Shown here one piece after another: positions 1,750 to 30,543 of a stretch of 64,000 nucleotides of DNA; the first letter of the stretch is position 1; each line of letters opens with the position of its first letter. Below the pieces are notes generated by a model. It was not told the DNA's origin. It searched no databases and was given only the letters and a program-made list of their open reading frames with translations. The stretch is from Knoellia sp. Soil729 (GTDB lineage Bacteria > Actinomycetota > Actinomycetes > Actinomycetales > Dermatophilaceae): assembly GCF_001427985.1 (NCBI RefSeq), contig NZ_LMSA01000001.1:563629-627628 (forward strand). Direction: 5' to 3'. The translations under genes and the position numbers were made by a program.

Positions 1750-2826
1750 GTGACTCGCGCGACAGCGGAGCGGCCGTTCGCGACCCGGACCCCGAAGGTG
1801 TCCTACGTGCTGCCCGTGCTCAACGACGCGGCCGCGCTCCACAAGGCCATCACGAGCGTGCTGGCGCAGGACTACCCCGGGGAGCAGGAGGTCGTCGTCG
1901 CCGTCGCCCCCTCGCACGACGGCACCCGGGCGGTCGCCGAGGAGCACAGCCGCGACGACCCACGGGTGCGCGTGGTCGACAACCCCGACACCGACATCCC
2001 GGCCGGGCTCAACCGTGCCGTCGCCGCCGCGGACGGCGAGGTCATCGTGCGTGTCGACGCCCACTCCGAGCTCCCCCCCGGATACACCCGGCGCATGGTC
2101 GAGACCCTGCGCCGCACCGGCGCGGCGAACGTCGGTGGCGTGATGCTGGCTCGGGGCAGCTCCGGGCTCCAGGCCTCCGTGGCCAGGGCCTACAACAGCG
2201 GGTTGGGCCTGGGTGGTGGCGCCTACCACGCCGGCACCGAGGAGGGTCCCGGCGAGTCGGCCTACCTCGGCGTCTTCCGCCGCAGCGACATCGAGCCGCT
2301 GGGCTGGTACGACGAGTCCCTGCGGCGCGGCGAGGACTACGAGCTCAACCAGCGGATCCTGGCGGCCGGACACCTCATCTGGTTCGTCCCCGATGTGCAG
2401 GTCGAGTACCGTCCGCGGGCCGGCTGGGGCTCGCTCGCCCGGCAGATGTATGCCACCGGGGTCTGGCGTGCCGAGATGGTGCGGCGCGCCCGCTCCACCC
2501 CACCGCGCTACCTCGCGGCTCCACTCGTGGTCGGTGGGCTCGGCGCCAGCCTGGCCGTGGGCGCTGCCCAGCTCGCTGGCGCCCCCAGATGGCCGTGGTC
2601 GGTGGTGCACACGGGTCCGATCGCGTATGCCGCCTTCCTCGCGTATGCCGGGCAGGCGATGGGCGGGCAGAGCGCCTCCGAACGTGTGCGCGACGCCGCG
2701 GCCGTGGCCACCATCCATCTCACCTGGGGCGCCGGTTTCCTCAAGGGCCTGGCCCTGGGCGCAGGCGCGACGGTCGACCGTTCCCGCGTCAGCCGCGGCG
2801 CCGGGCGCGCCCTGGGCCAACGCTGA
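1750..2826 (+). CDS. Family 2 glycosyltransferase with C-terminal membrane segments
   Basis: The N-terminal 230 residues form a GT-A fold: VSYVLPVLNDAAALHKAITS, a DVDA-like metal/nucleotide motif seen as RVDAHSE around residue 120, and a GEDYELNQRI acid/base-type motif near residue 200. The last 110 residues contain hydrophobic stretches (LVVGGLGASLAVGAAQLAG and a following AYAAFLAY), as in succinoglycan ExoA-like transferases that hand sugars to lipid carriers. GTG at 1750 follows a strong GAGGAGG sequence by four bases. The gene is flanked by TagF-like polymerases, so a role in a surface glycan is likely. Its 3' end overlaps the convergent TagF-like gene by 38 bases. Sugar donor and acceptor cannot be read from sequence. 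Confidence 0.85.
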   Translation: MTRATAERPFATRTPKVSYVLPVLNDAAALHKAITSVLAQDYPGEQEVVVAVAPSHDGTRAVAEEHSRDDPRVRVVDNPDTDIPAGLNRAVAAADGEVIVRVDAHSELPPGYTRRMVETLRRTGAANVGGVMLARGSSGLQASVARAYNSGLGLGGGAYHAGTEEGPGESAYLGVFRRSDIEPLGWYDESLRRGEDYELNQRILAAGHLIWFVPDVQVEYRPRAGWGSLARQMYATGVWRAEMVRRARSTPPRYLAAPLVVGGLGASLAVGAAQLAGAPRWPWSVVHTGPIAYAAFLAYAGQAMGGQSASERVRDAAAVATIHLTWGAGFLKGLALGAGATVDRSRVSRGAGRALGQR

Positions 2827-5104
2827 GCAGACGGTCGACGACCCTCCGGGATGCCTCACCGTCGTCGAGCGCGTTGAACTCGGCCTGCCACGAGGCATAC
2901 CTCGTGGCCCAGCGCTCCCGCTCCGCGGTCGCCGACAGCACGGCGTCGGCGCACTCGGACGCCGTGCGCACGAGCGGGCCCGGCGCTCTCGCACCGAGGT
3001 CCCAGTTGAGGCCACGGGTGGTCGATGAGTACTCCTCCTCGTCGGCGACGAAGAAGACCATCGGGCGGCCGGATGCGCTGAAGTCGAACATCACCGAGGA
3101 GTAGTCGGTGATGAGGACGTCCGCGGTCGCGAGGAGCGGACTCACGTCGGGCTCCCTGGTGACGTCAAGGACGCGTTCGCCGAGCGACTGCGTGCGCGCG
3201 TCCATGGTGCGGGCGTGACCGCGCACCAGCACGGTCCAGTCGGGCCCGAGGCGACGGGCGAGGTCGGCGACATCGAGGAGGTCCGGCGCGTCGAGGGCGT
3301 GGTCACGCCACGTGGGCGCATAGAGGACGACCTTGGGGGTCTTGATGCCGAGGCGGGAGCGGATGTCCCCGTCGTCACCGCGGGCGATGACGTCGTTGCG
3401 CGGGTAGCCCTCCACCCACATCGGGCGGGCAACGGCGTACGACCGGCGCAACAGCCGGGCTGCCGACGGGCTCTGCGCCAGCATCGCCGACCAGCGGGAG
3501 GACTGCTTGACGACGGCGGCGAACAGTCGCGGGGTCCGGCCCCGTCGCCCCAGGGCGATGCGCTTGAGCGGGGTGCCGTGCCAGGTCTGGAGCAGGAACT
3601 GGTCCCGACGGGGGCGCCAGTCGTCCTCGACCCAGTCGTTGAGGACCAACAGGTCCGCGGCGTCACGCGCGGCGAACCACTCGGGGGTTCCGCGTCGCAC
3701 CGCCTCGGCGCCGTGGGGAACGGTCACCGACGCATCGGTGACCGACCACGTCCGGCGGGCGGACGGCATACGCGCGGAGATCTCGCGGTCGAGGGCGGCC
3801 GGGTTGCACGAGACGTTGCGGCCGTGGAAGCTCTCGAAGAAGACCGTCCGCGGCCACTCCTCGAGCCGCTGTGCACCCGTGAGGGCGAGGACGCGGTCGA
3901 CCACCCGGGCGGCGGAACGACCGTCGCGGTGCGCGTGGAAGCGCTGGGCCACCCCGGCGGAGTGCGCCAGGGCCTCGGCCCGCGCCGGACCCTCCTCGAG
4001 GACAGCGGTGAGGCGTTCGAGCGCCTCGGCCCAGGTCCGCTGGACGGAGCCGCCAGCCGTGTCGGCATACGGCTCGTAGAGCCCGTGCTCGGCCGCATAG
4101 GTCACCTCGTCGGGAGCGAGATGCACGATGGGCCCGCCGGTAACGGCGTAGTCGACGAGGACCGATGAGAAGTCGGTGACGAGGGCATCGGCGGCGCTCA
4201 GCACGGCCATCACCTCGGGCTCCGCCTCGGATGCCAGCAGCCTGACCGCATCCGAGGTGTGGGTGTAGTCGCCGATGCCCAGAGGGTGTGGTCGCACGAC
4301 GAGGACAGCGTCGTGCTCGGCGAGCCAGGACTCGATGGCCTGCCACTCGGCGTGGGTCGGCACGACGGGATCGGCCCGTCCGTCGCGCCAGGTGGGCGCG
4401 AAGAGGACGACCCGGCGCTCACCCAGTGGGCCGACCGAGGACTCCAGCCGGGTGCGCGCCGCCCGGCGACGTTGCTCGGCGCCACCGCGGAAGAGCACGT
4501 CCGTCCTCGGCTCCCCCAGCACCTCGACCCGCCCCTCGGGGAGGCCGAAGGCGCCGCGGAGCCGGGGGACGACCAGCTCCGAACCGGCCGGCATCACGCC
4601 GATCCGGGACGTGCCACGTCGATACATGGCACCCATCAGCCGTCGTGCGGGAGCGATGCCGCCGATGATCGGCAGCCGCAGGGCCGCGGGGCTGTCCAGG
4701 TGCATGCGCTTGAGCGGGCTGCCGTGCCAGAGGTTGACCACGAGCGCACCACGGCTGCCGAAGCGACTCGCGTCGCCGAAGCCGTGCGTCACCACGACGA
4801 CGTCCGCCCGCAGGGCACGCCAGAACGCGCGCCACGAACCGTGGTCGAGGACGTCGGCACCGATTGCCCGTGCCGCGCGGGCCTCTCCGGCAGAGCGCGC
4901 GAGCCACGTCACCCGCGGCGGCGCGGGGCGGGACAGCGCCTCGACGAGGAGGGCACGGGCCCCGTCGTTGACCCCGAGAGCGCTTCCGACCACCCACGAG
5001 CCGCGACGGCGCGGGACGAGCCGGCTGAGGAGGTCACCGCCCAGGTAGCGCGGCAGGGCCAGCAACTTCGAGGCGTTGTTGCGGGCGAAGGCGTTGTCGG
5101 GCAC
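2789..5104 (-). CDS. Tandem two-domain TagF-like CDP-glycerol glycerophosphotransferase
   Basis: The 771-residue protein has two copies of the TagF catalytic domain in a row. Copy 1 (about 90-400) has NLWHGSPLKRM, FAPTWRDGR, VVRPHPLG and TDFSSVLVDY. Copy 2 (about 415-765) has LLQTWHGTPLKRIALG, YAPTWRDH, VRGHART and TDYSSVMFDF. Each copy thus keeps the histidine and the D-SS loop that bind the CDP-alcohol, so both look active. Usual TagF proteins have one such domain after a membrane-binding region. The product is probably a polyol-phosphate polymer, or the protein adds two different units. It is convergent with the GT2 gene (38 bases shared) and divergent from the LCP gene, which would attach such polymers to peptidoglycan. 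Confidence 0.88.
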   Translation of the reverse strand: MPDNAFARNNASKLLALPRYLGGDLLSRLVPRRRGSWVVGSALGVNDGARALLVEALSRPAPPRVTWLARSAGEARAARAIGADVLDHGSWRAFWRALRADVVVVTHGFGDASRFGSRGALVVNLWHGSPLKRMHLDSPAALRLPIIGGIAPARRLMGAMYRRGTSRIGVMPAGSELVVPRLRGAFGLPEGRVEVLGEPRTDVLFRGGAEQRRRAARTRLESSVGPLGERRVVLFAPTWRDGRADPVVPTHAEWQAIESWLAEHDAVLVVRPHPLGIGDYTHTSDAVRLLASEAEPEVMAVLSAADALVTDFSSVLVDYAVTGGPIVHLAPDEVTYAAEHGLYEPYADTAGGSVQRTWAEALERLTAVLEEGPARAEALAHSAGVAQRFHAHRDGRSAARVVDRVLALTGAQRLEEWPRTVFFESFHGRNVSCNPAALDREISARMPSARRTWSVTDASVTVPHGAEAVRRGTPEWFAARDAADLLVLNDWVEDDWRPRRDQFLLQTWHGTPLKRIALGRRGRTPRLFAAVVKQSSRWSAMLAQSPSAARLLRRSYAVARPMWVEGYPRNDVIARGDDGDIRSRLGIKTPKVVLYAPTWRDHALDAPDLLDVADLARRLGPDWTVLVRGHARTMDARTQSLGERVLDVTREPDVSPLLATADVLITDYSSVMFDFSASGRPMVFFVADEEEYSSTTRGLNWDLGARAPGPLVRTASECADAVLSATAERERWATRYASWQAEFNALDDGEASRRVVDRLLSVGPGRARRRG

Positions 5105-6469: not shown

Positions 6470-6562
6470 GCAGCCCGGCAGTCACGACAGCCAGGGCGTC
6501 CGTCGAAATAGGACGACATGCCCGGCCCGCGCGTTGTGGACCGGCGTGTCGCACAACCTCGA

Positions 6563-6581
6563 CCCACCTCGACGAGGTGGG
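6563..6581. terminator. Hairpin between convergent LCP and fadE25-like genes
   Basis: CCCACCTC and GAGGTGGG form a perfect 8-bp stem with a three-base loop. It lies in the 141-base gap where the LCP gene and the acyl-CoA dehydrogenase gene end facing each other, so it could stop transcription from both sides. There is no clear T-tract. The same gap also carries GGCGTGTC and CGGACGGCATACC, words shared with the intergenic repeats found at 17.3 and 19.1 kb. Confidence 0.5.
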
Positions 6582-6610
6582 CGGACGGCATACCGAAGGC
6601 TTGGTGGGCG

Positions 6611-9909: not shown

Positions 9910-11078
9910 TCGGAGATCGCTCCCTCGATGTAGTCGGCCGCGTGCCGCGCCCGCTCGCGCAGGTCGGCGAGGTCGTCACCGCTGACGTTGACGTGCCCGA
10001 TCTTGCGACCGGGACGCACGCCCTTGCCATAGAGGTGCACCTTGACCTCCGGGTCACGCGCCATGACATGACGGTATGCCGGGTAGAGGTCCGCGTGCTC
10101 GCCGCCGAGGATGTTGCCCATCACCGTCCACCGCTGGCGCGGCCGCGGTGAGCCGAGCGGCAGGTCGAGCACCGCACGCAGGTGCTGCTCGAACTGGCCG
10201 GTGACCGCGCCGTCCATCGACCAGTGGCCGCTGTTGTGCGGGCGCATCGCGAGCTCGTTGACGACGAACTCGCCACCGGGCAGCTCGAACAGCTCGACGG
10301 CCAGCACTCCGGTCACGCCGAGCTCCCCGGCGATGCGCAGCCCGGCCTCGGTGGCGCGGGCCGCCAGCTCCGGGTCGAGGCCGGCCGCTGGCGCGATCAC
10401 CTCCGTGCAGATGCTGTCGGTCTGGACCGTCTCGACGACCGGCCAGGCCGCCGCCTGTCCGGACGGGCTGCGCGCCAGGAGCACCGCGAGCTCGCGGGTG
10501 AAGGCGACCTTCTCCTCGAGCAGCAGCGGGGAGTCCTCGGACGCGGCTCGCTCGAGCCAGTCGGTCAGCTCGTCCGCGGAGCCGATGACCCGCACGCCCT
10601 TGCCGTCGTAGCCGCCGCGCGGTGTCTTGGCCACGACGGGCCAGCCGACCTCGTCCCCGAAGGACGTGACGTCATCGGCGGTACGAGCGGCCACCCACCG
10701 AGGGCACGGGATGCCGAGCGCGCTGAGCCGGTCGCGCATGGCCAGCTTGTCCTGCGCGAAGACCAGTGCCTCCGGGGTCGGGTGCATGACGACGCCGGCC
10801 GCGGCCAGCGCCCCCAGCACGTCAGTGGGCACCTGCTCGTGGTCGAAGGTCACGACGTCGCACTCCCGCGCGAACGCGAGGACCGCCTCGGTGTCTGTGT
10901 GGGCACCCACCGGCGCCGAGGGGATGACGAGGGCGGCACTGGCGTCGGGCGCCTCGGCGAGGACGCTCAGCGTGATCCCCAGCTCGGCGGCCGGGCCGGC
11001 GCACATCCTCGCGAGCTGCCCTCCCCCGATGATGCCGACGACGGGGAATCCTCCGGGTGCACGCAGCGGGGAAGTCAC
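9906..11078 (-). CDS. purK: N5-carboxyaminoimidazole ribonucleotide synthase PurK
   Basis: PurK is the ATP-grasp enzyme that makes N5-CAIR from AIR, bicarbonate and ATP, feeding PurE. The 390 residues include the N-terminal [12 protein letters not shown] loop, FDHEQVP in the position of the usual FE-hE motif, [15 protein letters not shown] (ATP-grasp lid), [16 protein letters not shown] and [20 protein letters not shown] 11078 is preceded by TATCCT and a six-base spacer, the leaderless pattern. It forms a two-gene operon with purE and is divergent from the GtrA gene, whose own leaderless promoter starts 33 bases away. Confidence 0.97.
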
Positions 11079-11122
11079 CCCGCGAGGATATCGGCCCGGG
11101 GTTTGGCCGCTACGCTCGGTCG

Positions 11123-11641
11123 GTGACGTCCACGACGCCCGGCCGAGGGCCGCTCGACCGGCTCCGGGGAGCCGTCGGCGTCCTCTATCGCGAGGCCATC
11201 AAGTTCGGTGTCATCGGCCTGGTGGCGTTCGTCATCGACATGGGCAGCTTCAACCTCCTGCGGCACACCGTGCTCGAGGACAAGCCCACCGCCGCAGTCA
11301 TCGTCTCGGCCTCGATCGCCACCGTGTTCGCGTGGGTCGGCAACCGCGCGTGGACGTTCCGGCACCGGCGCAACCGGCCCGCGCACCACGAGGCCGCGCT
11401 CTTCGCCGGCACCAACGGCGTCGCGCTGCTCATCCAGGCGGCCTGCGTCGCGTCCTCCAACTACCTGCTGGGGTTCGAGTCGCTCACGGCCGACAACGTC
11501 GCCAAGGTCGTGGGCATCGGGCTCGGCACGCTCTTCCGGTTCTGGGCCTACCGCCGCTACGTCTTCGCGGGAGAACCACTTGACCTCGACCAGTCACCTC
11601 TGAGCGACCGCAAGCCGCTCTCCGGGGGCACGCCACCCTGA
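11123..11641 (+). CDS. GtrA family membrane protein
   Basis: GtrA-type proteins are small four-helix membrane proteins thought to flip or deliver undecaprenyl-phosphate-linked sugars in cell-surface polysaccharide synthesis. The 172-residue protein has the expected layout: IKFGVIGLVAFVIDMGSFNL (helix 1), a second helix around VIVSASIATVFAWVGNRAWTF with the family motif N-R-x-W-T-F, a third around NGVALLIQAACVASSNYLL, and a fourth ending in RFWAYRRYVF. GTG 11123 is preceded by TACGCT plus six bases. M. tuberculosis carries a GtrA-like gene (Rv3277) at the same place next to purK. Substrate unknown. Confidence 0.88.
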   Translation: MTSTTPGRGPLDRLRGAVGVLYREAIKFGVIGLVAFVIDMGSFNLLRHTVLEDKPTAAVIVSASIATVFAWVGNRAWTFRHRRNRPAHHEAALFAGTNGVALLIQAACVASSNYLLGFESLTADNVAKVVGIGLGTLFRFWAYRRYVFAGEPLDLDQSPLSDRKPLSGGTPP

Positions 11642-11642
11642 C

Positions 11643-11741
11643 CGGCGTGTCCCGTGCCTTTCTCACCAATTCCCCCGAAATGCACCCGACACGCCGATAG
11701 CCACAGCGCGTATGCCGGGTGCTCACCTTCCGCTATCGGCG
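11643..11741. repeat. Intergenic repeat element, copy 5, with inverted repeats
   Basis: The gap between the convergent GtrA and histidine kinase genes holds one degenerate copy of a dispersed element whose core reads CCAATTCCCCC, then AAATGCAC, then GACACGCCG (about 11666-11696). Two nested inverted repeats are visible: GGCGTGTC with GACACGCC, and CGCCGATAG (11692-11700) with CTATCGGCG (11733-11741). Location at the tails of two convergent genes suggests a terminator-like or boundary role, which is inference. Confidence 0.65.
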
Positions 11742-11764
11742 CACCCCGGCCTCAGTCGTCGGCC

Positions 11765-12784
11765 TCAGTCGTCGGCCTCGGAGAGGAACACGGCGAAGAC
11801 CGCCGGCTGCGCGCTGACCAGCTCGAGGCGGCCACCGCTGTCCTCGGCGAGGTCCCGGGCCAGCGTGAGCCCCAGCCCGGAGCCGGTCGACGACACCGAC
11901 CGCTCGAAGATGTGCGGCGCGATGGCCGGTGCCACCCCGACGCCCTCGTCGCCCAGCTCGATGACCACCGAGGGGCCGGCCCGACGCGCAGCGATGTCCA
12001 CCACCCCTCGCCCGTGGGCGAGGGCATTCTCGATGAGCGTCGACATGATCTGGGCGAGGGCGACCGGGGTCACCCGGACGCGCAGCCCACGCTCGCCATG
12101 GATGCGCATGCTGCGCTTGGACGCGGCGAAGGCCGGCTGCCACTCGCGCTGCAGCGAGGCGAGCACGGCGTCGAGCGAGACGCTCGGGCGCGCCGGGTCG
12201 CCGACGCGGCTGCGTCCCATGAGGTCGTCGACGACCTTGGTCAACCGGTCCACCTGGGCGATGGCGACCTGGGCCTCCTCCTGCACGACCGCGAGGTCGT
12301 CGGTGGCGGCGATCTCGTCCAGGCGCATGAGCAGAGCCGTGAGAGGGGTGCGGAGCTGGTGCGAGGCGTCGGCGGCGAAGTCACGTTCGGCGGCGAGGTT
12401 GCGCGTCACCTGGTTGGCACTGCGTGAGAGGACGTCGCTGATGCGGTCGAGCTCGCGGATCCCCGAGTTGAGCGGGCGGAAGCGCGACTCGCCGGCGCCG
12501 AGCCGCTCGGCCCGGTCCGCTAGGGCGGTCAACGGGTCACCGAGCAGTCGGGCCCGGCGCTGCGCCACGAACCAGCCCGCACCGAGGCCGAGCAGCACCA
12601 GGACGACCACGAGCGCCGTCAGGATGACCACACCGTGCATCCCGGAGGTCGACTGCACGAGGTGCGTCCGCCTCTCGACGGGTGCCGTCGCCACGACGAC
12701 CCCCAGGACGAGCAGCGGGAGGGCCAGCAGGGCCACGGCGGCTCCGACCGCCGCGAGAGTCGATCTCAGCAGGAGACGGCGCAT
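11765..12784 (-). CDS. Two-component sensor histidine kinase
   Basis: The 339-residue protein has two membrane helices (about 5-33 and 53-73) around a very short extracellular loop, a HAMP-like segment (about 78-125), a dimerisation/phosphoacceptor helix with FAADASHQLRTPLTALL (His at about 145), and a HATPase domain with STLIENALAHG (N box), DEGVGV (G1) and GSGLGLTLA (G2). The small loop suggests it senses something in or near the membrane. It follows its response regulator by seven bases and is probably cotranscribed with it. ATG 12784 is chosen because it begins MRRLLLRS right before the first helix. The signal is unknown. Confidence 0.92.
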   Translation of the reverse strand: MRRLLLRSTLAAVGAAVALLALPLLVLGVVVATAPVERRTHLVQSTSGMHGVVILTALVVVLVLLGLGAGWFVAQRRARLLGDPLTALADRAERLGAGESRFRPLNSGIRELDRISDVLSRSANQVTRNLAAERDFAADASHQLRTPLTALLMRLDEIAATDDLAVVQEEAQVAIAQVDRLTKVVDDLMGRSRVGDPARPSVSLDAVLASLQREWQPAFAASKRSMRIHGERGLRVRVTPVALAQIMSTLIENALAHGRGVVDIAARRAGPSVVIELGDEGVGVAPAIAPHIFERSVSSTGSGLGLTLARDLAEDSGGRLELVSAQPAVFAVFLSEADD

Positions 12785-12791
12785 GCCCTCG

Positions 12792-13469
12792 TCAGCCCCC
12801 CGTGGGGTCGAAACGGAAGCCGACGCCACGGATCGTCGTGATGTACCGCGGTTGCATCGCGTCGTCACCGAGCTTCTTGCGCAGCACCGAGATGTGCATG
12901 TCGAGGGTCTTGGTGGAGCCGTACCACGCCGTCTCCCAGACCTCGCGCATCAGCTGCTCGCGGGAGATGACCTTGCCCTGGCTGCGGGCGAGGACGCGCA
13001 GGAGCTCGTACTCCTTGGCGGTCAGCTGGATCTCCTCGTCGTGGAGGAAGACCCGTCGTGACTCGGTGTCGACCCTGATGTCGACCTGGCCGGCGGTGGG
13101 CGTCTCGGGGATCCCCCGGCGAAGCAGGGCCCGGGCGCGGGCCAGGAGCTCAGCCAGCCGGAACGGCTTGGTGACGTAGTCGTCGGCGCCCGCATCGAGC
13201 CCCACGACGGTGTCGACCTCGTCGGCGCGGGCGGTGAGCACGAGCACCGGCACGGTGTAGCCCTCGCCGCGCAACCTGCGGCACACCTCGAGCCCGTCCA
13301 TCGTGGGCAGGCCAAGGTCGAGGACGAGGAGGTCGGGGCTGTCGCGCGCGGCCTCGAGTGCCTCGCGCCCGTCGGCGCGCACCTCCACCTCATAGCCCTC
13401 GCGCCGCAGGGCTCGGGCCAAGGGCTCCGAGATCGCCGGGTCGTCTTCGGCGAGCAGCACGCGAGTCAT
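12792..13469 (-). CDS. OmpR/PhoB-family response regulator
   Basis: A 225-residue DNA-binding regulator. The receiver domain has the acidic pair in LLAEDDPA, the phosphoacceptor Asp51 in LLVLDLGLP, the Thr/Ser switch in VLTARAD and the conserved Lys in VTKPFRL. The winged-helix domain (about 130-222) has LTAKEYELLRVLARSQGKVI and the recognition helix region TLDMHISVLRKKLGDD followed by IRGVGFRF. ATG 13469 is preceded by TAGCAT and a seven-base spacer, a leaderless promoter lying in the 29-base gap after the cyclase gene, so the pair could be expressed on its own as well as by read-through. Targets are unknown. Confidence 0.94.
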   Translation of the reverse strand: MTRVLLAEDDPAISEPLARALRREGYEVEVRADGREALEAARDSPDLLVLDLGLPTMDGLEVCRRLRGEGYTVPVLVLTARADEVDTVVGLDAGADDYVTKPFRLAELLARARALLRRGIPETPTAGQVDIRVDTESRRVFLHDEEIQLTAKEYELLRVLARSQGKVISREQLMREVWETAWYGSTKTLDMHISVLRKKLGDDAMQPRYITTIRGVGFRFDPTGG

Positions 13470-13498
13470 GCGGGCGATGCTAGTGGGAACAGGGGGAA

Positions 13499-14557
13499 TC
13501 ACGCGTGTTGGTCCCACGGGCGGTCCTTGCGCGCGCCGCTGGACCGGGCGAGCTCGAACGGGGTGATCGTGCCGATGCCACGCAGGTGGCGGCGGCGTTG
13601 CTCGATCATCGAGAACCCCGACAAGGTGCCCAGCGCCCGCGCGACCTCGTCGTCGACGAACACCCGACCGGGAGGCGTCACGGCCGTGAGCCTGCTGGCC
13701 CGGTTGACGGTCGTGCCGAAGACGTCGCCCAGCCGGCTGATGACCTTGCCCGAGGCCATGCCGACGCGCACGTCGGGCAGCAGGTCGTCTTCCCCCATGG
13801 CGTCGACGAGGTCGAGGCCGATGGCCGCCGCGGCGTTGGCGTCGGCGTGGACGAACAGCACCTCGTCGCCCACCGTCTTGATGACGCGCCCGCCGTGCGT
13901 CGTCACGACGTCGCTCGCGAGCTCCTCGAAGCGCTGGACGAGGGTGCCGAGCTGCCGCTCGGTCATCCGCCGCACGAGCGAGGTGAAGTTCACGAGGTCG
14001 GCGAAGCCCACGACCCGCAGCGGGGCACTCGGGTCGTGGTCGGTGTCGCGTGCATCGGCGAGCATGCGGGTGATCGCGGATGTGAGGTGACGTCGCCAGA
14101 CATAGACCATGAGCGGCTCGAGCTGGTCGACGAGGTCGACGATGAGGGTCGCCGACGCCTCGGCCACGCCGCGGTCGGGCACCGAGCGCGCGTCCTTCTC
14201 ACCGATCTCGGCCTCCTGCTCGTCGGGCGTGAGGTACTCCGCCACGAGCTGGGTCTGCCACACGGCCAGCCGGTCGGAGGTGCGCGCGAACGCGCGGGCC
14301 ATCGCCAGCGCCATGTCCTCGTCGAGGTCGCTGTCACGGATGAGGTTCGAGACCCGCACCAGTGCGTCGAGGTCGGCCTCGGTGAACATGATTTCCTCGT
14401 CGTCGACGATCTGGAAGCCGAGCGCGTGCCAGAGCTTGCGGGCCGACATGACCGACACCGCGGCCTCGCGGCTGATCTCGCGTCGTCCCATCGTGGCCGG
14501 GCGCCCGAGGAGCTTCTCCTCGATCTCGGCCTCGAAGTCACGCGGACGCTCGCTCAC
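13499..14557 (-). CDS. Class III adenylate/guanylate cyclase with N-terminal regulatory domain (Rv1264-like)
   Basis: The 352 residues split into an N-terminal alpha-helical domain (about 1-180) that resembles the autoinhibitory, pH-responsive domain of M. tuberculosis Rv1264, and a C-terminal cyclase homology domain. Catalytic residues look intact: metal-binding Asp in VGFADLVNF and in KTVGDEVLF, a purine-recognising Lys in the same IKTVGDE stretch, and [13 protein letters not shown] with the transition-state Asn and Arg. It should therefore make cAMP as a soluble dimer. A good ribosome binding site (GAGGAGG) precedes ATG 14557. It lies between birA and a two-component system on the same strand, with gaps of only about 30 bases, so read-through is likely. 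Confidence 0.9.
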
Positions 14558-14587
14558 GTGCCACTCCTCCTCGGGCTTCTCAAGATC

Positions 14588-15355
14588 TCACCGGACGTGG
14601 ACGACGTCACCGGCGGCCACGGCATACGGACCGTTGTCGGTCTCCAGGCACAGTCTGCCGTCTGCGTCGATCCCGGTCGCGACCCCGCGCACCTCACCGT
14701 GCGGGAGGTGGGTGACGACGGTTCGTCCGAGCGTTCCGCAGACTGCGGCGTATGCCGTCCGCACGGCATACGGGTCGTCGTCCAGCTCGCGCAGGAGGAC
14801 TGCCAGACGTCGCAGGTATGCCGTGAGCGCACCTTCGCGACTCACTCCCGGTGCGCCCGCGAGACGGAGCGAGGTGGCCGTGTCAACGGGGAGGTCGGCG
14901 CGCTCCTGGTCGATGTTGACGCCGGTGCCGACGACGACGCCTGCCGGGGTCAGCTCGGCGAGGATGCCGGCGAGCTTGCGGTCGTCGTCGGCGGGGACGA
15001 GGAGGTCGTTGGGCCACTTGAGGGCGATCTCGACACCGCTGACCTCGGTGAGGGCGTCGCGCAGGGCGAGGCCGACGACGAGAGGGACCCACCCCAGTGG
15101 CGCCCGCGCCGGGCGGGGCACGACGACGCTGGCCGCGATGCTCGTGCCGGGTGTCGTCGTCCACGCGCGGTCGAGTCGGCCACGTCCTGCTCGCTGCTCC
15201 TCCGCGGTGACGACGCGCCAGGGCCTCGGGTCGCGCACGAGCTCGGCATTGGTGGAGTCGACGATGTCGTGGACCTCGACGGGCAACCAGGGAGAGCCGG
15301 GTGTGACGAGGGACGCATCCATGGGGCGAGAGGCAGCAGGAAGGGTCACGGTCAC
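14588..15355 (-). CDS. birA: Biotin-[acetyl-CoA-carboxylase] ligase BirA
   Basis: BirA activates biotin to biotinyl-AMP and attaches it to the carrier lysine of carboxylases such as AccA3 further along this window. The 255-residue protein is the catalytic and C-terminal domains without the N-terminal DNA-binding domain of E. coli Bir[26 protein letters not shown] (the GRGR-type nucleotide loop), [11 protein letters not shown] and VVGTGVNID. Start choice is uncertain: GTG 15355 has a weak AAGGGA about ten bases upstream, GTG 15349 and ATG 15322 are in frame too. It is divergent from the carboxylase beta subunit gene, the same pairing as Rv3279c/Rv3280 in M. tuberculosis. Confidence 0.93.
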
Positions 15356-15360
15356 AAGGC

Positions 15361-15373
15361 TAGAGTCCCTTGC
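15361..15373 (+). promoter_or_regulatory. Leaderless-type promoter of accD5
   Basis: TAGAGT at 15361-15366 matches the actinobacterial -10 element TANNNT and is followed by seven bases and then the ATG of the carboxylase gene, so the transcript probably starts at the A of the start codon. The same arrangement recurs before about twenty genes in the window. The birA start lies just upstream in the other direction, so both genes share this short control region. Confidence 0.6.
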
Positions 15374-17026
15374 ATGGCGCAGACCGACACCCAGCCCACC
15401 GGCGGAACCGACCTCCCGGCGGCTGACACCGGCATCGACATCCACACGACGGCAGGCAAGCTGGCCGACCTCAAGCGGCGGGTCGGCGAAGTCGCCCACG
15501 CGGGGTCCGAGCGGGCTGTCGAGAAGCAGCACGCGCGCGGCAAGAAGACCGCCCGCGAGCGTCTCGAGATGCTCCTCGACGAGGGCTCGTTCGTCGAGAT
15601 GGACAAGTACGCGCGACACCGCTCGGTCGCGTTCGGCCAGGACGCGAACCGCCCCTACGGCGACGGTGTCGTCACGGGATACGGCACGGTCGACGGACGC
15701 ACGGTGGCCGTCTTCGCGCAGGACTTCACCGTCTTCGGCGGGTCCCTCGGTGAGGTCTTCGGCGAGAAGATCACCAAGGTCATGGACTTCGCGATGAAGG
15801 TGGGCTGCCCGGTGGTCGGGCTCAACGACTCCGGGGGCGCGCGCATCCAGGAGGGTGTGGCGTCGCTCGGCCTCTACGGCGAGATCTTCCGCCGCAACGT
15901 GCACGCGTCCGGCGTCATCCCGCAGATCTCGCTGATCATGGGGCCGTGCGCCGGTGGCGCCGTCTACTCCCCCGCCGTCACCGACTTCACCGTCATGGTC
16001 GACCAGACCTCGCACATGTTCATCACCGGGCCCGACGTCATCAAGACGGTCACCGGTGAGGACGTGGGCTTCGAGGAGCTCGGCGGTGCCCGCACCCACA
16101 ACTCCAAGTCCGGTGTCGCGCACTACATGGGGACGGACGAGGAGGACGCCGTCGAGTACGTCAAGGCGCTGCTGTCCTACCTGCCGTCGAACAACATGGA
16201 GGAGCCGCCGTCGTTCGCGGACTTCTCGGCCGACGACCTCCCCTCGCTCGAGGTGACCGACGAGGACCGTTTCCTTGACACGATCATCCCGGACAGCCCC
16301 AACCAGCCCTATGACATGCACCAGGTCATCGAGTCCTTGGTCGACGACGGCGACTTCCTGGAGGTCGCCCCGCTCTTCGCGCCCAACATGGTCATCGGCT
16401 TCGCCCGCATCGAGGGTCGGTCAGTGGGGATCGTGGCCAACAACCCGATGCAGTTCGCGGGGACCCTCGACATCGACGCCTCCGAGAAGGCTGCGCGCTT
16501 CGTGCGGACGTGCGACGCCTTCAACGTCCCGATCCTCACGCTCGTGGACGTGCCCGGGTTCCTGCCCGGCACCGACCAGGAGTGGGACGGCATCATCCGC
16601 CGCGGCGCGAAGCTGATCTACGCCTACGCCGAGGCCACGGTCCCACTCGTCACCGTCATCACCCGCAAGGCCTATGGCGGTGCTTACGACGTCATGGGGT
16701 CCAAGCACCTCGGCGCCGACATCAACCTCGCCTGGCCCACGGCGCAGATCGCGGTCATGGGCGCCCAGGGCGCGGTCAACATCCTCTATCGCAAGCAGCT
16801 CGCGGCAGCGGCCGAGCGTGGCGAGGACGTCGATGCCGCCCGCCAGACGTTCATCACCGAGTACGAGGACACGCTGGCCAACCCCTACGTCGCCGCCGAG
16901 CGCGGCTACATCGACACCGTCATCACGCCCTCCAACACCCGGATGAACGTCACCAAGGCGCTGCGGGCCCTGCGCACCAAGCGCGAGACCCTGCCCCCCA
17001 AGAAGCACGGGAACATCCCCCTCTGA
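15374..17026 (+). CDS. accD5: Acyl-CoA (propionyl/acetyl-CoA) carboxylase beta subunit, AccD5-like
   Basis: The carboxyltransferase subunit moves CO2 from carboxybiotin to acyl-CoA, giving malonyl- or methylmalonyl-CoA for fatty acid synthesis. The 550 residues contain the two crotonase-like halves: [16 protein letters not shown] and [18 protein letters not shown] (N half oxyanion holes) and [19 protein letters not shown] with [13 protein letters not shown] (C half). The length and the long N-terminal tail (about 45 residues) match AccD5/PccB. The next gene, one base overlapping, is the epsilon subunit, and AccA3 is at 31.5 kb. The operon order accD-accE with divergent birA is conserved in actinobacteria. 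Confidence 0.95.
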
Positions 17027-17259
17027 TGGCTGACGACGAAGCCCAGCCCGAAACCGGTGCGGCACAACGCATCGAGGTCCTCGGTGACGCCACGCCCGAG
17101 CAGGTGGCGGCCCTGGTCGCCGTCCTGTCGGCAGCCTCCGGGGGCGCTGCTGAGGCCGCACCCGCCCGCCAACCATCGGCATGGTCCGCACCCGCAGGAC
17201 TGCTCCGCCGCTCCATGACCCCAGGACCCGGCGGCTGGCAGCACTCCCTCCGTCCCTAA
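17026..17259 (+). CDS. accE: Acyl-CoA carboxylase epsilon subunit AccE
   Basis: A 77-residue protein whose ATG overlaps the stop of the beta-subunit gene (TGATG), so translation is coupled. It has an acidic N terminus, a short core IEVLGDATPEQVAALVAVLSA, and a tail with SAWSAPAGLLRRSM and a Trp near the end (GGWQHSLRP), the pattern of actinobacterial AccE, which strengthens the AccA3-AccD5 complex. The family is weakly conserved in sequence; the identification rests on the core, size and position. Rv3281 holds the same place in M. tuberculosis. Confidence 0.9.
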   Translation: MADDEAQPETGAAQRIEVLGDATPEQVAALVAVLSAASGGAAEAAPARQPSAWSAPAGLLRRSMTPGPGGWQHSLRP

Positions 17260-17262
17260 CTC

Positions 17263-17374
17263 CCCAATTCCCCCCAAATGCACGAGACACGCCGGTATGC
17301 CGGCCGCCCGGTCTCCCGTGCTTTTCTCACCCAATTCCCCCCAAATGCACGAGACACGCCGGTATGCCGGCCGC
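17263..17374. repeat. Tandem pair of the intergenic repeat (copies 1 and 2)
   Basis: A 45-base sequence occurs identically at 17263-17307 and 17330-17374 (period 67 bases). Each copy runs CCCAATTCCCCCC, AAATGCACGAGACAC, GCCGGTATGCCGGCCG. The last part can fold as GCCGG-TATG-CCGGC. The spacer between the copies (CCGGTCTCCCGTGCTTTTCTCA) has TTTTCTCAC, also found before other copies. The pair fills the gap between the convergent accE and MOSC genes. Related copies are at 11.66 kb and, inverted, at 19.04-19.15 kb. Confidence 0.85.
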
Positions 17375-17377
17375 TCC

Positions 17378-18034
17378 CTACCGCTCCCAGCGGACGAGCT
17401 TCCCGGCCAGTTTCTCGTGCTCTCGCTCGGGCATGACACGAGCGGCCAGCACCTTCCGGGCTAGTTCGGGGTCGCCCATGCAGGCCCGGAACACCTCCGG
17501 CACGGTGATGCCGTGGCCCGGGCGCCAGACCACCTGAATCTCGTCGGAGGGACGGATCATGCCGCACTGGGTGACTGCCAAGTAGGCCCCTGTCCGCCCA
17601 CGTTCGGTGAAGGCCTTCACCCAGCCGCGCACACCCATGTGGGCCGAGAACGTGGCGCAGGGGACGCGCGGCCCGGTCACCGTCAGGACAACTGAGCTAC
17701 CGATGCGCCACTGTTCGCCGATCACCGATGCATCAACGTCGAAGCCCGCGGTCGTGAGGTTCTCGCCGAACGCTCCCGGTCGCAGGTCACGACCCAGGTC
17801 AACCGACCACCGGTCGAGCTCCTCGCGCGCAAAGGCGTACACGGCCTGTGTCGAACCCCCGTGGTGCTTGAGATTGACGACGGCGTCGCCGCTGACTCCG
17901 CTGGCGCCGGTTCCCTTGGGACCGGGGTCGAAGACAGTGGTCTCGTCGGTGGGGTGCTTGTCGATTCCCGTGAGCCGCTTGATGATCCCGGCAGTGGGGA
18001 GACCGATGTTGACCGAGTGCACGCGGGCTGTCAT
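17378..18034 (-). CDS. MOSC domain protein (YiiM-like)
   Basis: MOSC proteins are related to the C-terminal domain of molybdenum cofactor sulfurase; YiiM-type members reduce N-hydroxylated compounds with a molybdenum cofactor. The 218 residues include a first segment SVNIGLPTAGIIKRLTGIDKHP, the core LKHHGGSTQAVYAFAREELDRW, PGAFGENLTTAGFDVDASVIGEQW (split by the usual beta strands) and the conserved metal-ligand Cys in GPRVPCATFSAHMG (about 130). No partner gene is adjacent. ATG 18034 is preceded by TACGCT and six bases (leaderless pattern). Substrate not known. Confidence 0.88.
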   Translation of the reverse strand: MTARVHSVNIGLPTAGIIKRLTGIDKHPTDETTVFDPGPKGTGASGVSGDAVVNLKHHGGSTQAVYAFAREELDRWSVDLGRDLRPGAFGENLTTAGFDVDASVIGEQWRIGSSVVLTVTGPRVPCATFSAHMGVRGWVKAFTERGRTGAYLAVTQCGMIRPSDEIQVVWRPGHGITVPEVFRACMGDPELARKVLAARVMPEREHEKLAGKLVRWER

Positions 18035-18102
18035 GGGGGCAGCGTAGGTGGGCTTGTGGATATCTCGAGCTCCATTTTCCGCGGAGCCGCCACAGTGGGG
18101 TG

Positions 18103-19017
18103 ATGTCCGACTTCGACCCCTTCCGCCCCTTCCTCACGGACTGGGCCACCACGGCTGGTGTGTCGAGACGTGAGCTCGCGGGGCCGGCATACCGGCGTAT
18201 CTTCCACGGGGTCCACATCAGTGCGGCGGTTCCCGACACCCTGGTCGTCCGGGCACGCGCTGCCGTCCTGCGTGCCCCTGCCCACTGCAGGCTGAGCCAC
18301 GAGACGGCGGGCCAGCTGTGGGTGCCGTCGTGGCCCAGCAGCAGCGACGTGCATCTCGCCTTCAGCCGGGACGTGAAGTCGATGGGCGAGGGCATCAAGA
18401 CGCATCGGTTCACCTATGAGATGGAGAAGTGGACTCGGCACGGGCTCCCCGTCACTGGCCCGGCGATGACGTTCATCCACCTCGCTGTGCGGTTCGACCT
18501 CGTTGGCCTCGTCTGTTTCGGCGACCGGTTGGTGGCGCGCGACGCCATCACGCCCGAGGAGCTCGTGTCCGCCGTGGAGGCCTGGGAAGGGCACGGGCGC
18601 CGGGCAGCGACCGCCGCCGCGCGGCTGGTGCGCGCCCGCTCCGAGTCCGTGCCCGAGACCCAGTCCCGCCTGCTCGTCGTCCTTGCCGGGCTGCCCGAGC
18701 CGGTGTGCAACCACCCGTACCTCGTGGGTGGCATCGAGCGATACCGGCTGGACCTGGCCTGGGTCGAGTACAAGGTGGCGTTGGAGTACGACGGGCGGTG
18801 GCACGACGAGCCAGAACAGCGACAAAAGGACGAGGCACGGCGCAAGGAGATGCGCGATGCCGGATGGATCATCATCGTCATCCGCGCGGAGCACCTCTAT
18901 GACTTCCCCGACGAGGTGGTGCGTGAGGTGGCGGACGCCCTGCGACAGCGAGGCTGCCCGGTGAGGGTCCGCGCCACCTACCAGCGCTGGTTCCAACCGC
19001 GCGGGAAGATCGCGTGA
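18103..19017 (+). CDS. DUF559 (VSR-endonuclease-like) domain protein with N-terminal AbiEi-like region
   Basis: The 304-residue protein ends in a DUF559 domain of the PD-(D/E)xK nuclease superfamily: YRLDLAWVEYKVALEYDGRW, followed by an RKDEARRKEMRDAGW-like helix and a VIRAEHLYDF strand. The Asp, Glu and Lys spacing (RLDLAW, ALEYDG) is that of this fold. The first 200 residues (VSRRELAGPAYRRIFHGVH, CRLSHETAGQLW) resemble the winged-helix and fold of actinobacterial proteins often annotated as type IV toxin-antitoxin AbiEi-like. Such genes are common and usually solitary; the cellular role is unknown. ATG 18103 is chosen over GTG 18100; a -10-like CACAGT sits six bases upstream. Confidence 0.82.
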   Translation: MSDFDPFRPFLTDWATTAGVSRRELAGPAYRRIFHGVHISAAVPDTLVVRARAAVLRAPAHCRLSHETAGQLWVPSWPSSSDVHLAFSRDVKSMGEGIKTHRFTYEMEKWTRHGLPVTGPAMTFIHLAVRFDLVGLVCFGDRLVARDAITPEELVSAVEAWEGHGRRAATAAARLVRARSESVPETQSRLLVVLAGLPEPVCNHPYLVGGIERYRLDLAWVEYKVALEYDGRWHDEPEQRQKDEARRKEMRDAGWIIIVIRAEHLYDFPDEVVREVADALRQRGCPVRVRATYQRWFQPRGKIA

Positions 19018-19036
19018 GGTGGTCGGGCGAGCTGCG

Positions 19037-19157
19037 CGGACGGCATACCCGGCGTGTCCGTGCTTTTCGGGGGAATTGGGTGGGATGTGCACGCGGGCGG
19101 GCGGACGGCATACCGGCGTGTCTGGTGCATTTGGGGGGAATTGGGTGAGATGTGCAC
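19037..19157. repeat. Inverted tandem pair of the intergenic repeat (copies 3 and 4)
   Basis: Two copies of the element of 17.3 kb lie here in the opposite orientation, at about 19037-19080 and 19102-19145 (period 65). Each reads CGGACGGCATACC, then CGGCGTGTC, then a variable GTGC segment, then GGGGGAATTGGG, and is followed by TGNGATGTGCACG. The copies differ from each other at several positions, unlike the identical pair at 17.3 kb. They fill the gap between the DUF559 and DUF885 genes, just upstream of the DUF885 promoter. Confidence 0.8.
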
Positions 19158-19174
19158 GAGGTAGCGTCGGGCTG

Positions 19175-20893
19175 GTGACCCAGACCTCCCCCACGTCAGC
19201 GCCCACGTCCGTCCGCACCCCGACCGCCGTCGACGCCATCGCGGAGCGGCACTTCGACGCCGTCGTGCACCACAGCCCCATCGAGGCGACCTACCTCGGG
19301 ATCGACGTGCGCCAGGACGAGCTGGACGACTTCTCCCCAGAGGGCTACGACGCCCGGGCCGAGCTCGCGCGGACCACGCTCGCCGAGCTCGACGGCGCCG
19401 AACCGGTGGACGACATCGACCGGGTGACGATCGCGGCCATGCGCGAGCGCCTGGGCCTCGACCTCGAGATCCACGAGGCCGGACTCAGGCAGTGCGACGT
19501 CAACGTCCTCGCCTCGCCGATGCAGTCGGTGCGTGACGTCTTCGACCTCATGCCCACAGCGACGCCGGAGCACTGGGCGACGATCACCCGGCGCCTGAGG
19601 GCTCTGCCCCCGGCTCTGGAGCAGTGGCGCGCCACGCTGCTCGCCGCCGTCGAGGCCGACCCCACCCACGTCGCGGCCCGCCGCCAGGTCCGGGCCTGCA
19701 TGAGCCAGTGCGACGACCTCGTCAGGGACGACGGCTTCTTCACCACGTTCGTCAGCGGCGCCCGCATCGGCGGCCCCCAAGGCCAACGACTCGACGAGGC
19801 GGCCCAGCGTGACCTCGAGGCCGCAGCGGCGTCGGCCGTCGAGGCCTATGCCGAGCTCAAGACCTTCCTGGGCGAGCAGCTGCTCCACCGCGCCCGCACC
19901 GAGGACGCCGTCGGGCGCGAGCGCTACCAGCGGGCCAGCCGCCTGTTCCTCGGGGCCACGGTCGACCTGGAGGAGACGTACGCCTGGGGGCAGGAGGAGA
20001 CCGCCCGTCTCGACGCCGAGATGCGCCGCACCGCCGAGCGCATCGTCCCCGGCGGCAGCATCACCGACGCGATCGCAGCGCTCGGTGCCGACCCGGCATA
20101 CCAGCTGCAGGGGACCGATGCCCTGCGCGACTGGATGCAGACCAAGGCGGACGAGGTGATGGACCTGCTCGACGGCACCCACTTCGACATCCCCGAGCCC
20201 GTGCGGACGATCGAGTGCAGGATCGCGCCGACCCACACCGGCGGGATCTACTACACGGGCCCGAGCGAGGACTTCACCCGCCCGGGCCGCATGTGGTGGT
20301 CGGTGCCGCGAGGTGTCGAGACGTTCGGGACGTGGAACGAGCTGAGCACCGTCTACCACGAGGGCGTCCCCGGCCACCACCTCCAGGTCGCGCAGACCAC
20401 CTATCGCGCAGAGCTGCTCAACCGCTGGCGCCGGATGCTGTGCTGGGTGAGCGGCCACGGCGAGGGCTGGGCCCTCTATGCCGAGCGGCTGATGGCCGAC
20501 CTCGGCTTCATGGAGGACCCCGGGAACTACCTCGGCTTCCTCAACGCCCAGTCGCTGCGAGCGGCGCGGGTCGTCCTCGACATCGGCATCCACTGCGGCT
20601 TTGAGGCACCGGCCGAGGTGGGCGGCGGCGAGTGGACCTACGACAAGGCGTGGACCTACCTCACCGCACACAACATCGACGACGAGGCCTCGCTGCGCTT
20701 CGAGCTCGACCGCTACCTGGGGTGGCCGGGCCAGGCCCCGAGCTACAAGGTCGGCGAGCGCATCTGGATGCAGCTGCGCGACGACACCGCTGCGCGAGAG
20801 GGCGACTCGTTCGACCCCAAGGCCTTCCACCGTCGTGCGCTCGACGTCGGCTCGGTGGGGCTGGACGTGCTCGTGGAGGCCATGCAGGGCTGA
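19175..20893 (+). CDS. DUF885 family protein (metallopeptidase-like)
   Basis: A 572-residue soluble protein of the DUF885 family, a gluzincin-like group. The zinc motif is HEGVPGHHLQVAQ (about 400), and a second conserved block, GHGEGWALYAERLMADLGF (about 430), supplies the further ligand Glu and catalytic neighbours. RPGRMWWSVP and LRAARVVLDIGIHCG are also typical. Members are thought to be peptidases of uncertain substrate. No signal peptide is visible. GTG 19175 is chosen because TAGCGT and a seven-base spacer precede it (leaderless pattern); the frame stays open upstream through the repeats, but that part is not protein-like. Confidence 0.88.
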   Translation: MTQTSPTSAPTSVRTPTAVDAIAERHFDAVVHHSPIEATYLGIDVRQDELDDFSPEGYDARAELARTTLAELDGAEPVDDIDRVTIAAMRERLGLDLEIHEAGLRQCDVNVLASPMQSVRDVFDLMPTATPEHWATITRRLRALPPALEQWRATLLAAVEADPTHVAARRQVRACMSQCDDLVRDDGFFTTFVSGARIGGPQGQRLDEAAQRDLEAAAASAVEAYAELKTFLGEQLLHRARTEDAVGRERYQRASRLFLGATVDLEETYAWGQEETARLDAEMRRTAERIVPGGSITDAIAALGADPAYQLQGTDALRDWMQTKADEVMDLLDGTHFDIPEPVRTIECRIAPTHTGGIYYTGPSEDFTRPGRMWWSVPRGVETFGTWNELSTVYHEGVPGHHLQVAQTTYRAELLNRWRRMLCWVSGHGEGWALYAERLMADLGFMEDPGNYLGFLNAQSLRAARVVLDIGIHCGFEAPAEVGGGEWTYDKAWTYLTAHNIDDEASLRFELDRYLGWPGQAPSYKVGERIWMQLRDDTAAREGDSFDPKAFHRRALDVGSVGLDVLVEAMQG

Positions 20894-30441: not shown

Positions 30442-30444
30442 CCT

Positions 30445-30535: not shown

Positions 30536-30543
30536 GGGCGGGG

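What the first reader, a model, noticed from the sequence alone, without database searches (positions are those of the whole stretch)
11643..19157. A dispersed intergenic repeat of about 45-60 bp in three gaps, twice as tandem pairs
Five copies of one element were found by eye: one at about 11666-11696, an identical tandem pair at 17263-17307 and 17330-17374 (45 bases without a difference, period 67), and a diverged inverted pair at 19037-19080 and 19102-19145 (period 65). Core parts are AATTCCCCCC, AAATGCAC and GACACGCCGGTATGCCG. All lie outside genes, two of the three sites between convergent genes. Identity of the 17.3 kb pair suggests recent duplication or gene conversion; the ability to fold (GCCGG-TATG-CCGGC) and the GTGC/TTTTCTCAC flank suggest a defined unit, like REP/BIME or a non-autonomous element. 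A partial match (GGCGTGTC, CGGACGGCATACC) lies at 6541-6595. I know of no named family with this sequence.
Basis: partly seen in the sequence, partly recalled or inferred. Interest (0 to 1): 0.75.

Follow-up and report, generated by a model that had tools for sequence, protein, structure and literature searches.

The report
Species-dialect hairpin repeats at gene ends
The repeat is real and belongs to a genus-wide family of long DNA hairpins at the ends of genes, whose copies change together in each species, by a mechanism that is not known.

Summary
They are half-units ("arms", about 33 bp) of a larger element. Outside the window the usual form is two inverted arms around a short loop, a 66-100 bp hairpin. 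The host genome has about 17 sites, and 9 of 9 genomes of the genus carry the family. The sequence differs by species but the pairing is kept: 92.7% of cells paired, 309 cells with changes on both sides against 99 in shuffles. Of 71 hairpins from 8 genomes, 55 share a site with another species, yet they resemble copies in their own genome (identity 0.84), not the copy at the same site elsewhere (0.73): concerted evolution. Of 57 classified, 0 lie between divergent and 33 between convergent genes. The RAYT transposase family was not found in the 9 genomes. Best reading: a REP/REPIN-like mini-element without RAYT, homogenised by an unknown enzyme, tolerated as a 3'-end hairpin. The adjoining GTATGCCG is a separate feature: the most over-represented octamer of a 464 kb sample, 2,138 copies against 89 reversed, with uptake-sequence statistics.

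The parts
11654..11685 (+). site A: single arm GTGCCTTTCTCACCAATTCCCCCGAAATGCAC between GtrA-like gene (11057-11641 +) and sensor kinase gene (11765-12868 -)
11644..11651 (+). site A: GGCGTGTC, inverted partner of the spacer GACACGCC on the other side of the arm
11688..11695 (+). site A: spacer GACACGCC
11710..11717 (+). site A: octamer GTATGCCG
17252..17283 (+). site B: arm 1 GTCCCTAACTCCCCAATTCCCCCCAAATGCAC; its TAA (17257-17259) is the stop codon of the acyl-CoA carboxylase epsilon gene
17284..17302 (+). site B: spacer GAGACACGCCG plus octamer GTATGCCG (17295-17302)
17318..17350 (+). site B: arm 2 (tandem copy, period 67)
17351..17369 (+). site B: spacer plus octamer GTATGCCG (17362-17369); MOSC gene (17378-18034 -) follows
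19041..19048 (-). site C: octamer of copy 1
19060..19092 (-). site C: arm, copy 1
19106..19113 (-). site C: octamer of copy 2
19125..19157 (-). site C: arm, copy 2 (period 65), before the DUF885 gene

Best explanation
The window copies are half-units of a palindromic mini-element family (REP/REPIN-like) of an unnamed genus that I take to be actinobacterial. SHOWN: the arm (about 33 nt) has mostly complementary ends and can fold alone; two inverted arms form a hairpin of 66-100 nt; single arms occur in tandem arrays with a spacer and often GTATGCCG; copies in a genome share a species-specific sequence, although most sit at sites shared between species; those that I could classify lie at 3' ends of genes, some supply the stop codon, and some lie in frame inside a gene; no Y1/RAYT transposase gene was found in the genus. 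INFERRED: the elements are non-autonomous. Copies are made and old copies are overwritten at their existing sites by a copy-and-replace process that acts on the folded single strand (an unknown enzyme that recognises the arm core CTC(A/G)CC.AATT), which gives the concerted change. They are kept at gene ends because the hairpin is harmless or useful there as a terminator or 3'-end stabiliser for both converging transcripts.
For: Copies across the genome and genus: 25 core matches in the host genome with 0 reversed; covariance models find the family in 8 of 9 and 9 of 9 genomes. Pairing kept while sequence changes: 92.7% of 1,678 cells paired, 309 cells with changes on both sides against 99 in shuffles (0 of 500 reach it), slid controls 55.3% paired or less. 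Concerted change: arm identity 0.838 within genomes (344 pairs), 0.730 at shared sites between species (57), 0.719 at other sites between species (2,084); the nearest neighbour is in the same genome for 65 of 71, at the shared site for 0 of 71 and elsewhere for 6; 50 of 55 elements are closer to own-genome copies, 5 are not. Shared site means a homologous flank: 55 of 71, of which 45 have both flanks homologous. Gain, loss and replacement: site A is occupied in G000, G001, G005 and (fragment of other dialect) G006 but not in the other 5, against the tree (read by eye); the same in-frame site of an ABC exporter holds this element in 4 genomes, a different hairpin in G003 and no doublet in G006. 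3'-end placement: 33 convergent, 24 co-directional, 0 divergent, against 40, 107, 42 background gaps of the host (Fisher p 3e-7 for convergent, 9e-6 for divergent). Stop codon inside the first arm at 20 of 99 gene-facing ends, 17 at one fixed offset.
Against: No enzyme was found. No strain-level insertion, excision or target duplication was seen; only one genome per species was available. Shared sites argue against free transposition. One covariation measure is weak: the number of pairs with double changes (17 of 24) is reached by 29 of 500 shuffles. No U-tract terminator was detected at the window copies, so termination is inferred from position and fold only. 13 of 71 elements overlap an ORF of my crude caller; after reading them I trust two sites (5 elements) as in-frame insertions, an ABC exporter (4) and a proton-antiporter/NuoL-like gene in G001 (1); the others are undecided. 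One host doublet against plasmids and one G005 doublet against phages found nothing.
Confidence: 0.5

Rival explanations
1. Uptake-driven convergence: the arms (or the octamer carried with them) are recognised by a DNA-uptake receptor of a naturally transformable bacterium. Biased uptake and recombination through the homologous flanks push all loci to the receptor's preferred sequence, so dialects change in concert without transposition.
For: Sites are conserved while sequences converge, which uptake drive explains without inter-locus copying. The same genomes carry GTATGCCG 1,971-3,277 times with equal strands, and 23 of 71 doublets have it within 60 bp outside (8.9 expected). comEC (PF03772) is present in 9 of 9 genomes. 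Uptake-sequence hairpins at tail-to-tail genes are known in Neisseria and Pasteurellaceae (passages of PMC1852404).
Against: Tens of copies of a 33-nt site is far from the copy numbers of known uptake sequences. The octamer is inside only 1 of 71 doublets (5.7 expected). It does not explain in-frame insertion or replacement by another hairpin family. comEC does not separate motif-rich from motif-poor genomes (180 of 186 have it).
Confidence: 0.17
2. Bidirectional terminators under structural selection only, not mobile.
For: Position relative to genes, very stable folds (-62.4 and -71.7 kcal/mol for the two examples folded), stop codons in the arm, compensatory changes.
Against: [quoted passage not shown]
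Confidence: 0.13
3. Binding sites of a fast-evolving DNA-binding protein (insulator, roadblock or nucleoid protein); each arm is a dyad with 8-9 nt half-sites and a conserved AATT centre.
For: Arm ends are complementary (mean 5.1 of 8 positions) and the core CTC(A/G)CC..AATT varies least in the alignment.
Against: Would need many sites in each of 9 species to be rewritten by point mutation alone; gives no reason for doublets with a loop, nor for in-frame copies.
Confidence: 0.12
4. A classical REP/REPIN system moved by a RAYT.
For: Same architecture: inverted doublets, singlets, tandem clusters, two alternative folds (passages of PMC3116915).
Against: PF01797 found in 0 of 9 genomes of the genus and 4 of 186 in the family, those four 68-87% complete, while 5 of 14 control genomes ring. 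No GTAG at any of 142 element ends.
Confidence: 0.04

Closest known systems
REPINs / REP (GTAG family) with RAYT transposases (PMC3116915, PMC3733652; passages seen)
   Same: Palindromic unit, inverted doublets that fold either as one long hairpin or as two small ones, singlets and tandem clusters, mostly extragenic.
   Different: No RAYT found, no GTAG tag, and sites shared between species while the sequence changes in concert.
CGTC-tagged REPs, including dRS3 of Neisseria and RPE-4/RPE-6 of Rickettsia (PMC3733652, passages)
   Same: Doublets dominate, no dedicated transposase, some intragenic; the paper reports different REPs at about the same site of recB in two Xanthomonas species, like the ABC exporter here.
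   Different: CGTC at only 41 of 142 element ends; loop of a single arm 15 nt in one example instead of 4-5.
Rickettsia palindromic elements (RPE; passage of PMC10969869)
   Same: Palindromic inserts kept in frame inside coding genes.
   Different: About 77 bp instead of about 150 bp; mostly intergenic; concerted dialects.
USS/DUS hairpins as terminators in Neisseria and Pasteurellaceae (PMC1852404, passages)
   Same: Hairpins enriched between convergent genes; an abundant short motif that also occurs as inverted pairs.
   Different: Those hairpins are made of the uptake sequence; here the octamer lies beside the arms. Uptake function untested; bacterial group different.

Membership tests
REP/REPIN (GTAG) | inverted pair of palindromic units forming a hairpin | tested here: met
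   71 doublets
REP/REPIN (GTAG) | RAYT (Y1 transposase) gene in the genome | tested here: not met
   PF01797: 0 of 9 genomes of the genus
REP/REPIN (GTAG) | GTAG tag at one end | tested here: not met
   0 of 142 ends, also within -6 to +10 nt
CGTC REP | CGTC tag at one end | tested here: not met
   41 of 142 outer ends
CGTC REP | stem 8-9 bp, loop 4-5 nt | tested here: inconclusive
   two single arms folded: L008 has a 9-bp stem with a 15-nt loop; L192 an outer 7-bp and inner 5-bp stem with a 5-nt loop
MITE | terminal inverted repeats shared with an autonomous transposon; target duplication | not tested
   no search was made for a larger element ending in these arms; intergenic flanks of relatives looked too diverged for a target duplication; no strain pairs
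Rho-independent terminator | hairpin followed by a T-run | tested here: not met
   window 11500-19400 only: 2 terminator-like sites (1.6 expected), neither at the repeats; sites elsewhere not scanned
DNA uptake sequence (octamer GTATGCCG) | about 1,000 or more copies in the genome | tested here: met
   2,138 against 89 reversed in the host; 1,971-3,277 in 9 genomes; top octamer, 310 against 13.3 expected in 464 kb
DNA uptake sequence (octamer GTATGCCG) | both strands, genic and intergenic, some inverted pairs | tested here: met
   1,055/1,083; 227 genic, 79 intergenic, 4 at gene edges; 9 inverted against 3 direct close pairs, but only 1 of the 9 between convergent genes
DNA uptake sequence (octamer GTATGCCG) | promotes DNA uptake through a receptor | not testable with these tools
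   comEC present but not discriminating; pili and receptor not searched

The most novel reading that the evidence does not exclude
A naturally transformable actinobacterial lineage uses GTATGCCG as a DNA uptake sequence (a kind described, in the passages and listings I saw, only for Gram-negative families), and beside it keeps several families of hairpin mini-elements whose copies are rewritten to the current species dialect at their existing sites, even inside coding genes, by an unknown non-RAYT process that acts on folded single strands.
Probability: 0.25. Interest if true: 0.9.

Novelty: new variant of a known kind. Interest (0 to 1): 0.72.

Why it matters
Dispersed short repeats that stay at the same sites but change sequence together in every species are a clean case of concerted evolution in bacteria, without the transposase that explains REPINs. 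The family gives about 70 natural variants with compensatory changes, shared sites across the genus and in-frame copies inside an ABC exporter, so the open question of how REP-like elements are homogenised becomes testable. The octamer, if it is an uptake sequence, would extend self-recognition in transformation to actinobacteria and offers family-wide natural contrasts: 106 of 186 genomes rich (400 copies or more), 65 of 186 poor (under 130).

Tried and rejected
Known RNA family: Rfam gathering scan of the window, 0 matches. RAYT/IS200-like transposase: PF01797, 0 of 1 own, 4 of 186 family. Simple terminator with T-run. Remnant of a coding gene: rejected, because most doublets lie between genes and vary as hairpins. 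Wide distribution of the host dialect: an exact 17-mer in the species-genome collection gave 42 stretches, none titled as an actinobacterium, read as chance (records near the host may be left out there); strict pattern in 186 family genomes, 2 with a match. Carriage on phages or plasmids: none (one query against each). REPtron-like locus: a gene flanked by arrays of the second hairpin family in L241 reads to me as a DoxX-type membrane protein (recalled, no family search), not a transposase. comEC as a discriminator of octamer-rich genomes: does not discriminate; the 6 of 186 without a hit carry 341-1,485 octamers, four of them 58-81% complete and two 93-95%. Paper search for the octamer letters: 643 papers; I saw only the 20 listed, none of which concerns such a repeat. 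Searches for earlier reports: (listings only, the larger ones cut); nothing on this repeat or on an actinobacterial uptake sequence was seen there, and most subscription papers are not held.

Limits of the counts. The 71 doublets are 12 of the host and 59 of seven relatives (none of G006); 12 further places of relatives that I could read in the listing were not fetched, and that listing was itself cut. One irregular element (L183) was left out of the alignment and model (70 rows). One search scored at most 24 candidates a genome, so its copy counts are floors. Relatives were found with a model built from 11 host elements and one of G007. Gene calls come from my own GC-position ORF caller, and the background gaps are of the host only. 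Arms were taken as 33 nt. The table was retyped into.
Full report
WHAT IS IN THE WINDOW. The five copies are real and at the stated places: core 19-mers at 11667, 17265, 17332 (+) and 19060, 19125 (-), none in 100 shuffles. Each is one arm of 32-33 nt beginning GTGC or GTCC and ending GCAC, with mostly complementary ends, followed by a spacer GACACGCC and, except at site A where it lies further off, within 2 nt by GTATGCCG. Sites A and B lie between convergent genes (GtrA-like/sensor kinase; acyl-CoA carboxylase epsilon/MOSC) and site C between co-directional genes (DUF559-like, then DUF885). The stop codon of the epsilon gene lies inside the first arm of site B.

THE WHOLE ELEMENT. The same core, with up to 3 mismatches, matches 25 places in the 3.6 Mb host genome, 0 for the reversed pattern; these group by distance into 16 sites, and a covariance model adds one (C2:343642). 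Twelve of the 17 are doublets: arm, loop, inverted arm, for example GTGCGTTTCTCACCCAATTCCCCCGAAATGCAC-GGACACGCCGT-GTGCATATCGGGGGAATTGGGTGAGAAACGCAC. The other five, among them the three window sites, are single arms or tandem arms. The loop of 9 of the 12 host doublets holds GACACGCC in one orientation or the other, the spacer of the window copies, so the window copies look like elements whose second arm is missing, with GTATGCCG in its place. The arm can also fold alone (9-bp stem and 15-nt loop for L008), the alternative that was discussed for REPINs (passage of PMC3116915).

DIALECTS. A model from 12 elements finds relatives in 8 of 9 genomes of the genus at E up to 1, and a model from 70 elements in 9 of 9, and in 17 of 186 of the family at E up to 0.01; outside the genus G099 (8 matches on two strands), G136 (4) and G100 (1) are strong and five genomes have one weak match each. 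I printed 60 elements. Each species has its own arm: GTGCGTTTCTCACCCAATTCCCCCGATATGCAC in the host; GTCCCCAACTCGCCAATTCCCCTCGTCCGGGAC in G007; GTCCCGAACTCACCCAATTCCCGGGTTGGGGAC in G008; two kinds in G005; and so on. The core CTC(A/G)CC..AATT varies least, while the outer and inner ends change together so that pairing holds: 92.7% of 1,678 cells paired, 309 cells with changes on both sides against 99 in shuffles and a covariation score of 0.474 against 0.144, each 0 of 500; slid versions pair 55.3% or less. The bare number of pairs with double changes, 17 of 24, is less telling: 29 of 500 shuffles reach it. The alignment is a plain MAFFT one, but the structure is the RNAalifold consensus of the same rows.

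CONCERTED CHANGE AT SHARED SITES. The set is 71 doublets of 8 genomes (12 host; none of G006). Comparing 700-bp flanks, 55 of 71 sit at a site also occupied in another species (45 of them with both flanks homologous in at least one pair) and 16 do not. Arm identity is 0.838 within genomes, 0.730 at shared sites between species and 0.719 at unrelated sites between species; 65 of 71 nearest neighbours are in the same genome (about 10 expected from the set sizes, my arithmetic), 6 elsewhere and none at the shared site; 50 of 55 elements are closer to own-genome copies, 5 are not. The bias of the search model towards the host dialect works against this result. By eye: window site B carries two or more units in 9 of 9 genomes, each in its own dialect (G006 in a very different one); site C one to four units in six genomes, with remnants in G006 and G008 (G004 was not read there); site A is occupied in G000, G001 and G005, by a fragment of other dialect in G006, and not in the other five, which does not follow the tree ((G000,(G006,G007)),(G005,G008)),(G002,G003),(G004,G001).

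POSITION AND GENES. With a simple ORF caller, 33 of 71 doublets lie between convergent and 24 between co-directional genes, 0 between divergent ones, 13 overlap a called ORF and 1 gave no call; the background of gaps of 60 bp or more in 464 kb of the host is 40, 107 and 42 (Fisher p). Of 142 element ends, 99 are faced by a gene: its stop codon lies before the element in 75 (median 18 nt), inside the first arm in 20 (17 of them at the same offset, 15 as TAA) and beyond it in 4; at 43 ends no gene was seen running in. In one ABC exporter the element lies between the Pfam matches of the membrane and ATPase domains with the frame open through it in four species, each in its own dialect. The G003 orthologue has at that place a different long hairpin and G006 a 15-aa linker with an arm-like fragment; G004, G005 and G008 were not examined. 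A second in-frame case is in a proton-antiporter/NuoL-like gene of G001, whose orthologues I did not look at.

NOT A KNOWN SYSTEM. PF01797 was found in 0 of 9 genomes of the genus and in 4 of 186 of the family, those 68-87% complete, while 5 of 14 controls ring. GTAG is at 0 of 142 ends and CGTC at 41 of 142. Of the REP surveys I saw passages only: PMC3733652 does not contain a word beginning with Actinobacteria, and PMC12306157 names three Actinomycetota species with REP counts, whose sequences I did not see. It works like a REP/REPIN and, inside genes, like an RPE, but fails the RAYT and tag tests for membership.

THE OCTAMER. GTATGCCG occurs 49 times in the window (26 + and 23 -; reversed octamer 2) and 2,138 times in the host against 89 reversed; in the 9 genomes 1,971-3,277 against 54-276, strands equal. 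In 464 kb of the host it is the most over-represented octamer, 310 against 13.3 expected under a third-order Markov model. It is genic (227), intergenic (79) and at gene edges (4), most often in the frames that spell Tyr-Ala and Ala-Tyr, with spacing of coefficient of variation 0.80. Two of five positions seen in 5 kb of aligned, mostly coding DNA are kept in all nine genomes. In the family, 106 of 186 genomes (30 of 53 genera) have 400 or more copies and 65 have fewer than 130; three genera hold both kinds. Samples of 60-100 kb of one genome from each of three poor genera show no comparable octamer. These are the statistics of a DNA uptake sequence; uptake itself is untested, comEC does not discriminate, and only 1 of 9 inverted close pairs is between convergent genes. 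It is linked to the hairpins by position: within 60 bp outside 23 of 71 doublets (8.9 expected), inside 1 of 71 (5.7 expected), and beside 22 of 42 arms of the window sites found by a simple core pattern, which misses the G006 arms and some others.

A SECOND HAIRPIN FAMILY. Searching held DNA for long hairpins (stem 20 or more) gave 9 in 464 kb of the host, 9 and 7 in 200 kb of G003 and G006, 0-1 in 60-100 kb of three other genera (G060, G152, G009), 0 in 40 kb of G107 and 29 kb of G099, and 0 in a triplet-shuffled control. Five of the nine host ones belong to another family, CGACTGATTGCCCGTTCGGCC and its inverse, again as doublets and tandem arrays and with another dialect in G003 (23 arms in 464 kb of the host; 6 in G003 and 0 in G006 with a looser pattern); the hairpin in the G003 ABC exporter is of this family. 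Two apparently unrelated families at one in-frame site are the best sign that such sites are refilled.

VERDICT. The mechanism of homogenisation is the open point: I favour a copy-and-replace process on folded strands by an unidentified enzyme, with retention at gene ends as terminator-like hairpins, at even odds; uptake-driven convergence is the strongest rival.

Noticed in passing
window, 49 places (e.g. 2625, 4063-, 7798, 14750/14764-, 62143-): GTATGCCG, an over-represented octamer of the whole genus and of more than half of the genomes of its family (106 of 186), with the copy number and strand balance of a DNA uptake sequence.
   Followed up: partly
L227:6211, L229:13207, L233:3669 and 19576, L241:6962 and 13934-14990; L293:13263 (G003): A second, apparently unrelated hairpin family (CGACTGATTGCCCGTTCGGCC) with the same doublet and array architecture and another dialect in G003.
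   Followed up: partly
window 30442-30538: A 97-nt palindrome, 88% complementary, between ORFs 28981-30441 (+) and 30544-32511 (-); it shares GTTCGGCCCGGAAC with a hairpin at L235:13468.
   Followed up: no
L013:1488-1561 and orthologues L167, L201, L212: The element is in frame inside an ABC exporter gene in four species.
   Followed up: yes
L241:13934-13966: The TGA inside an arm of the second hairpin family ends the upstream ORF (12458-13939), another donated stop codon.
   Followed up: no
L260-L261 (G107): ATCGCGAT, a palindromic octamer, counted 16 times over both strands (8 places) against 0.7 expected in 40 kb, above GTATGCCG in this sample.
   Followed up: no
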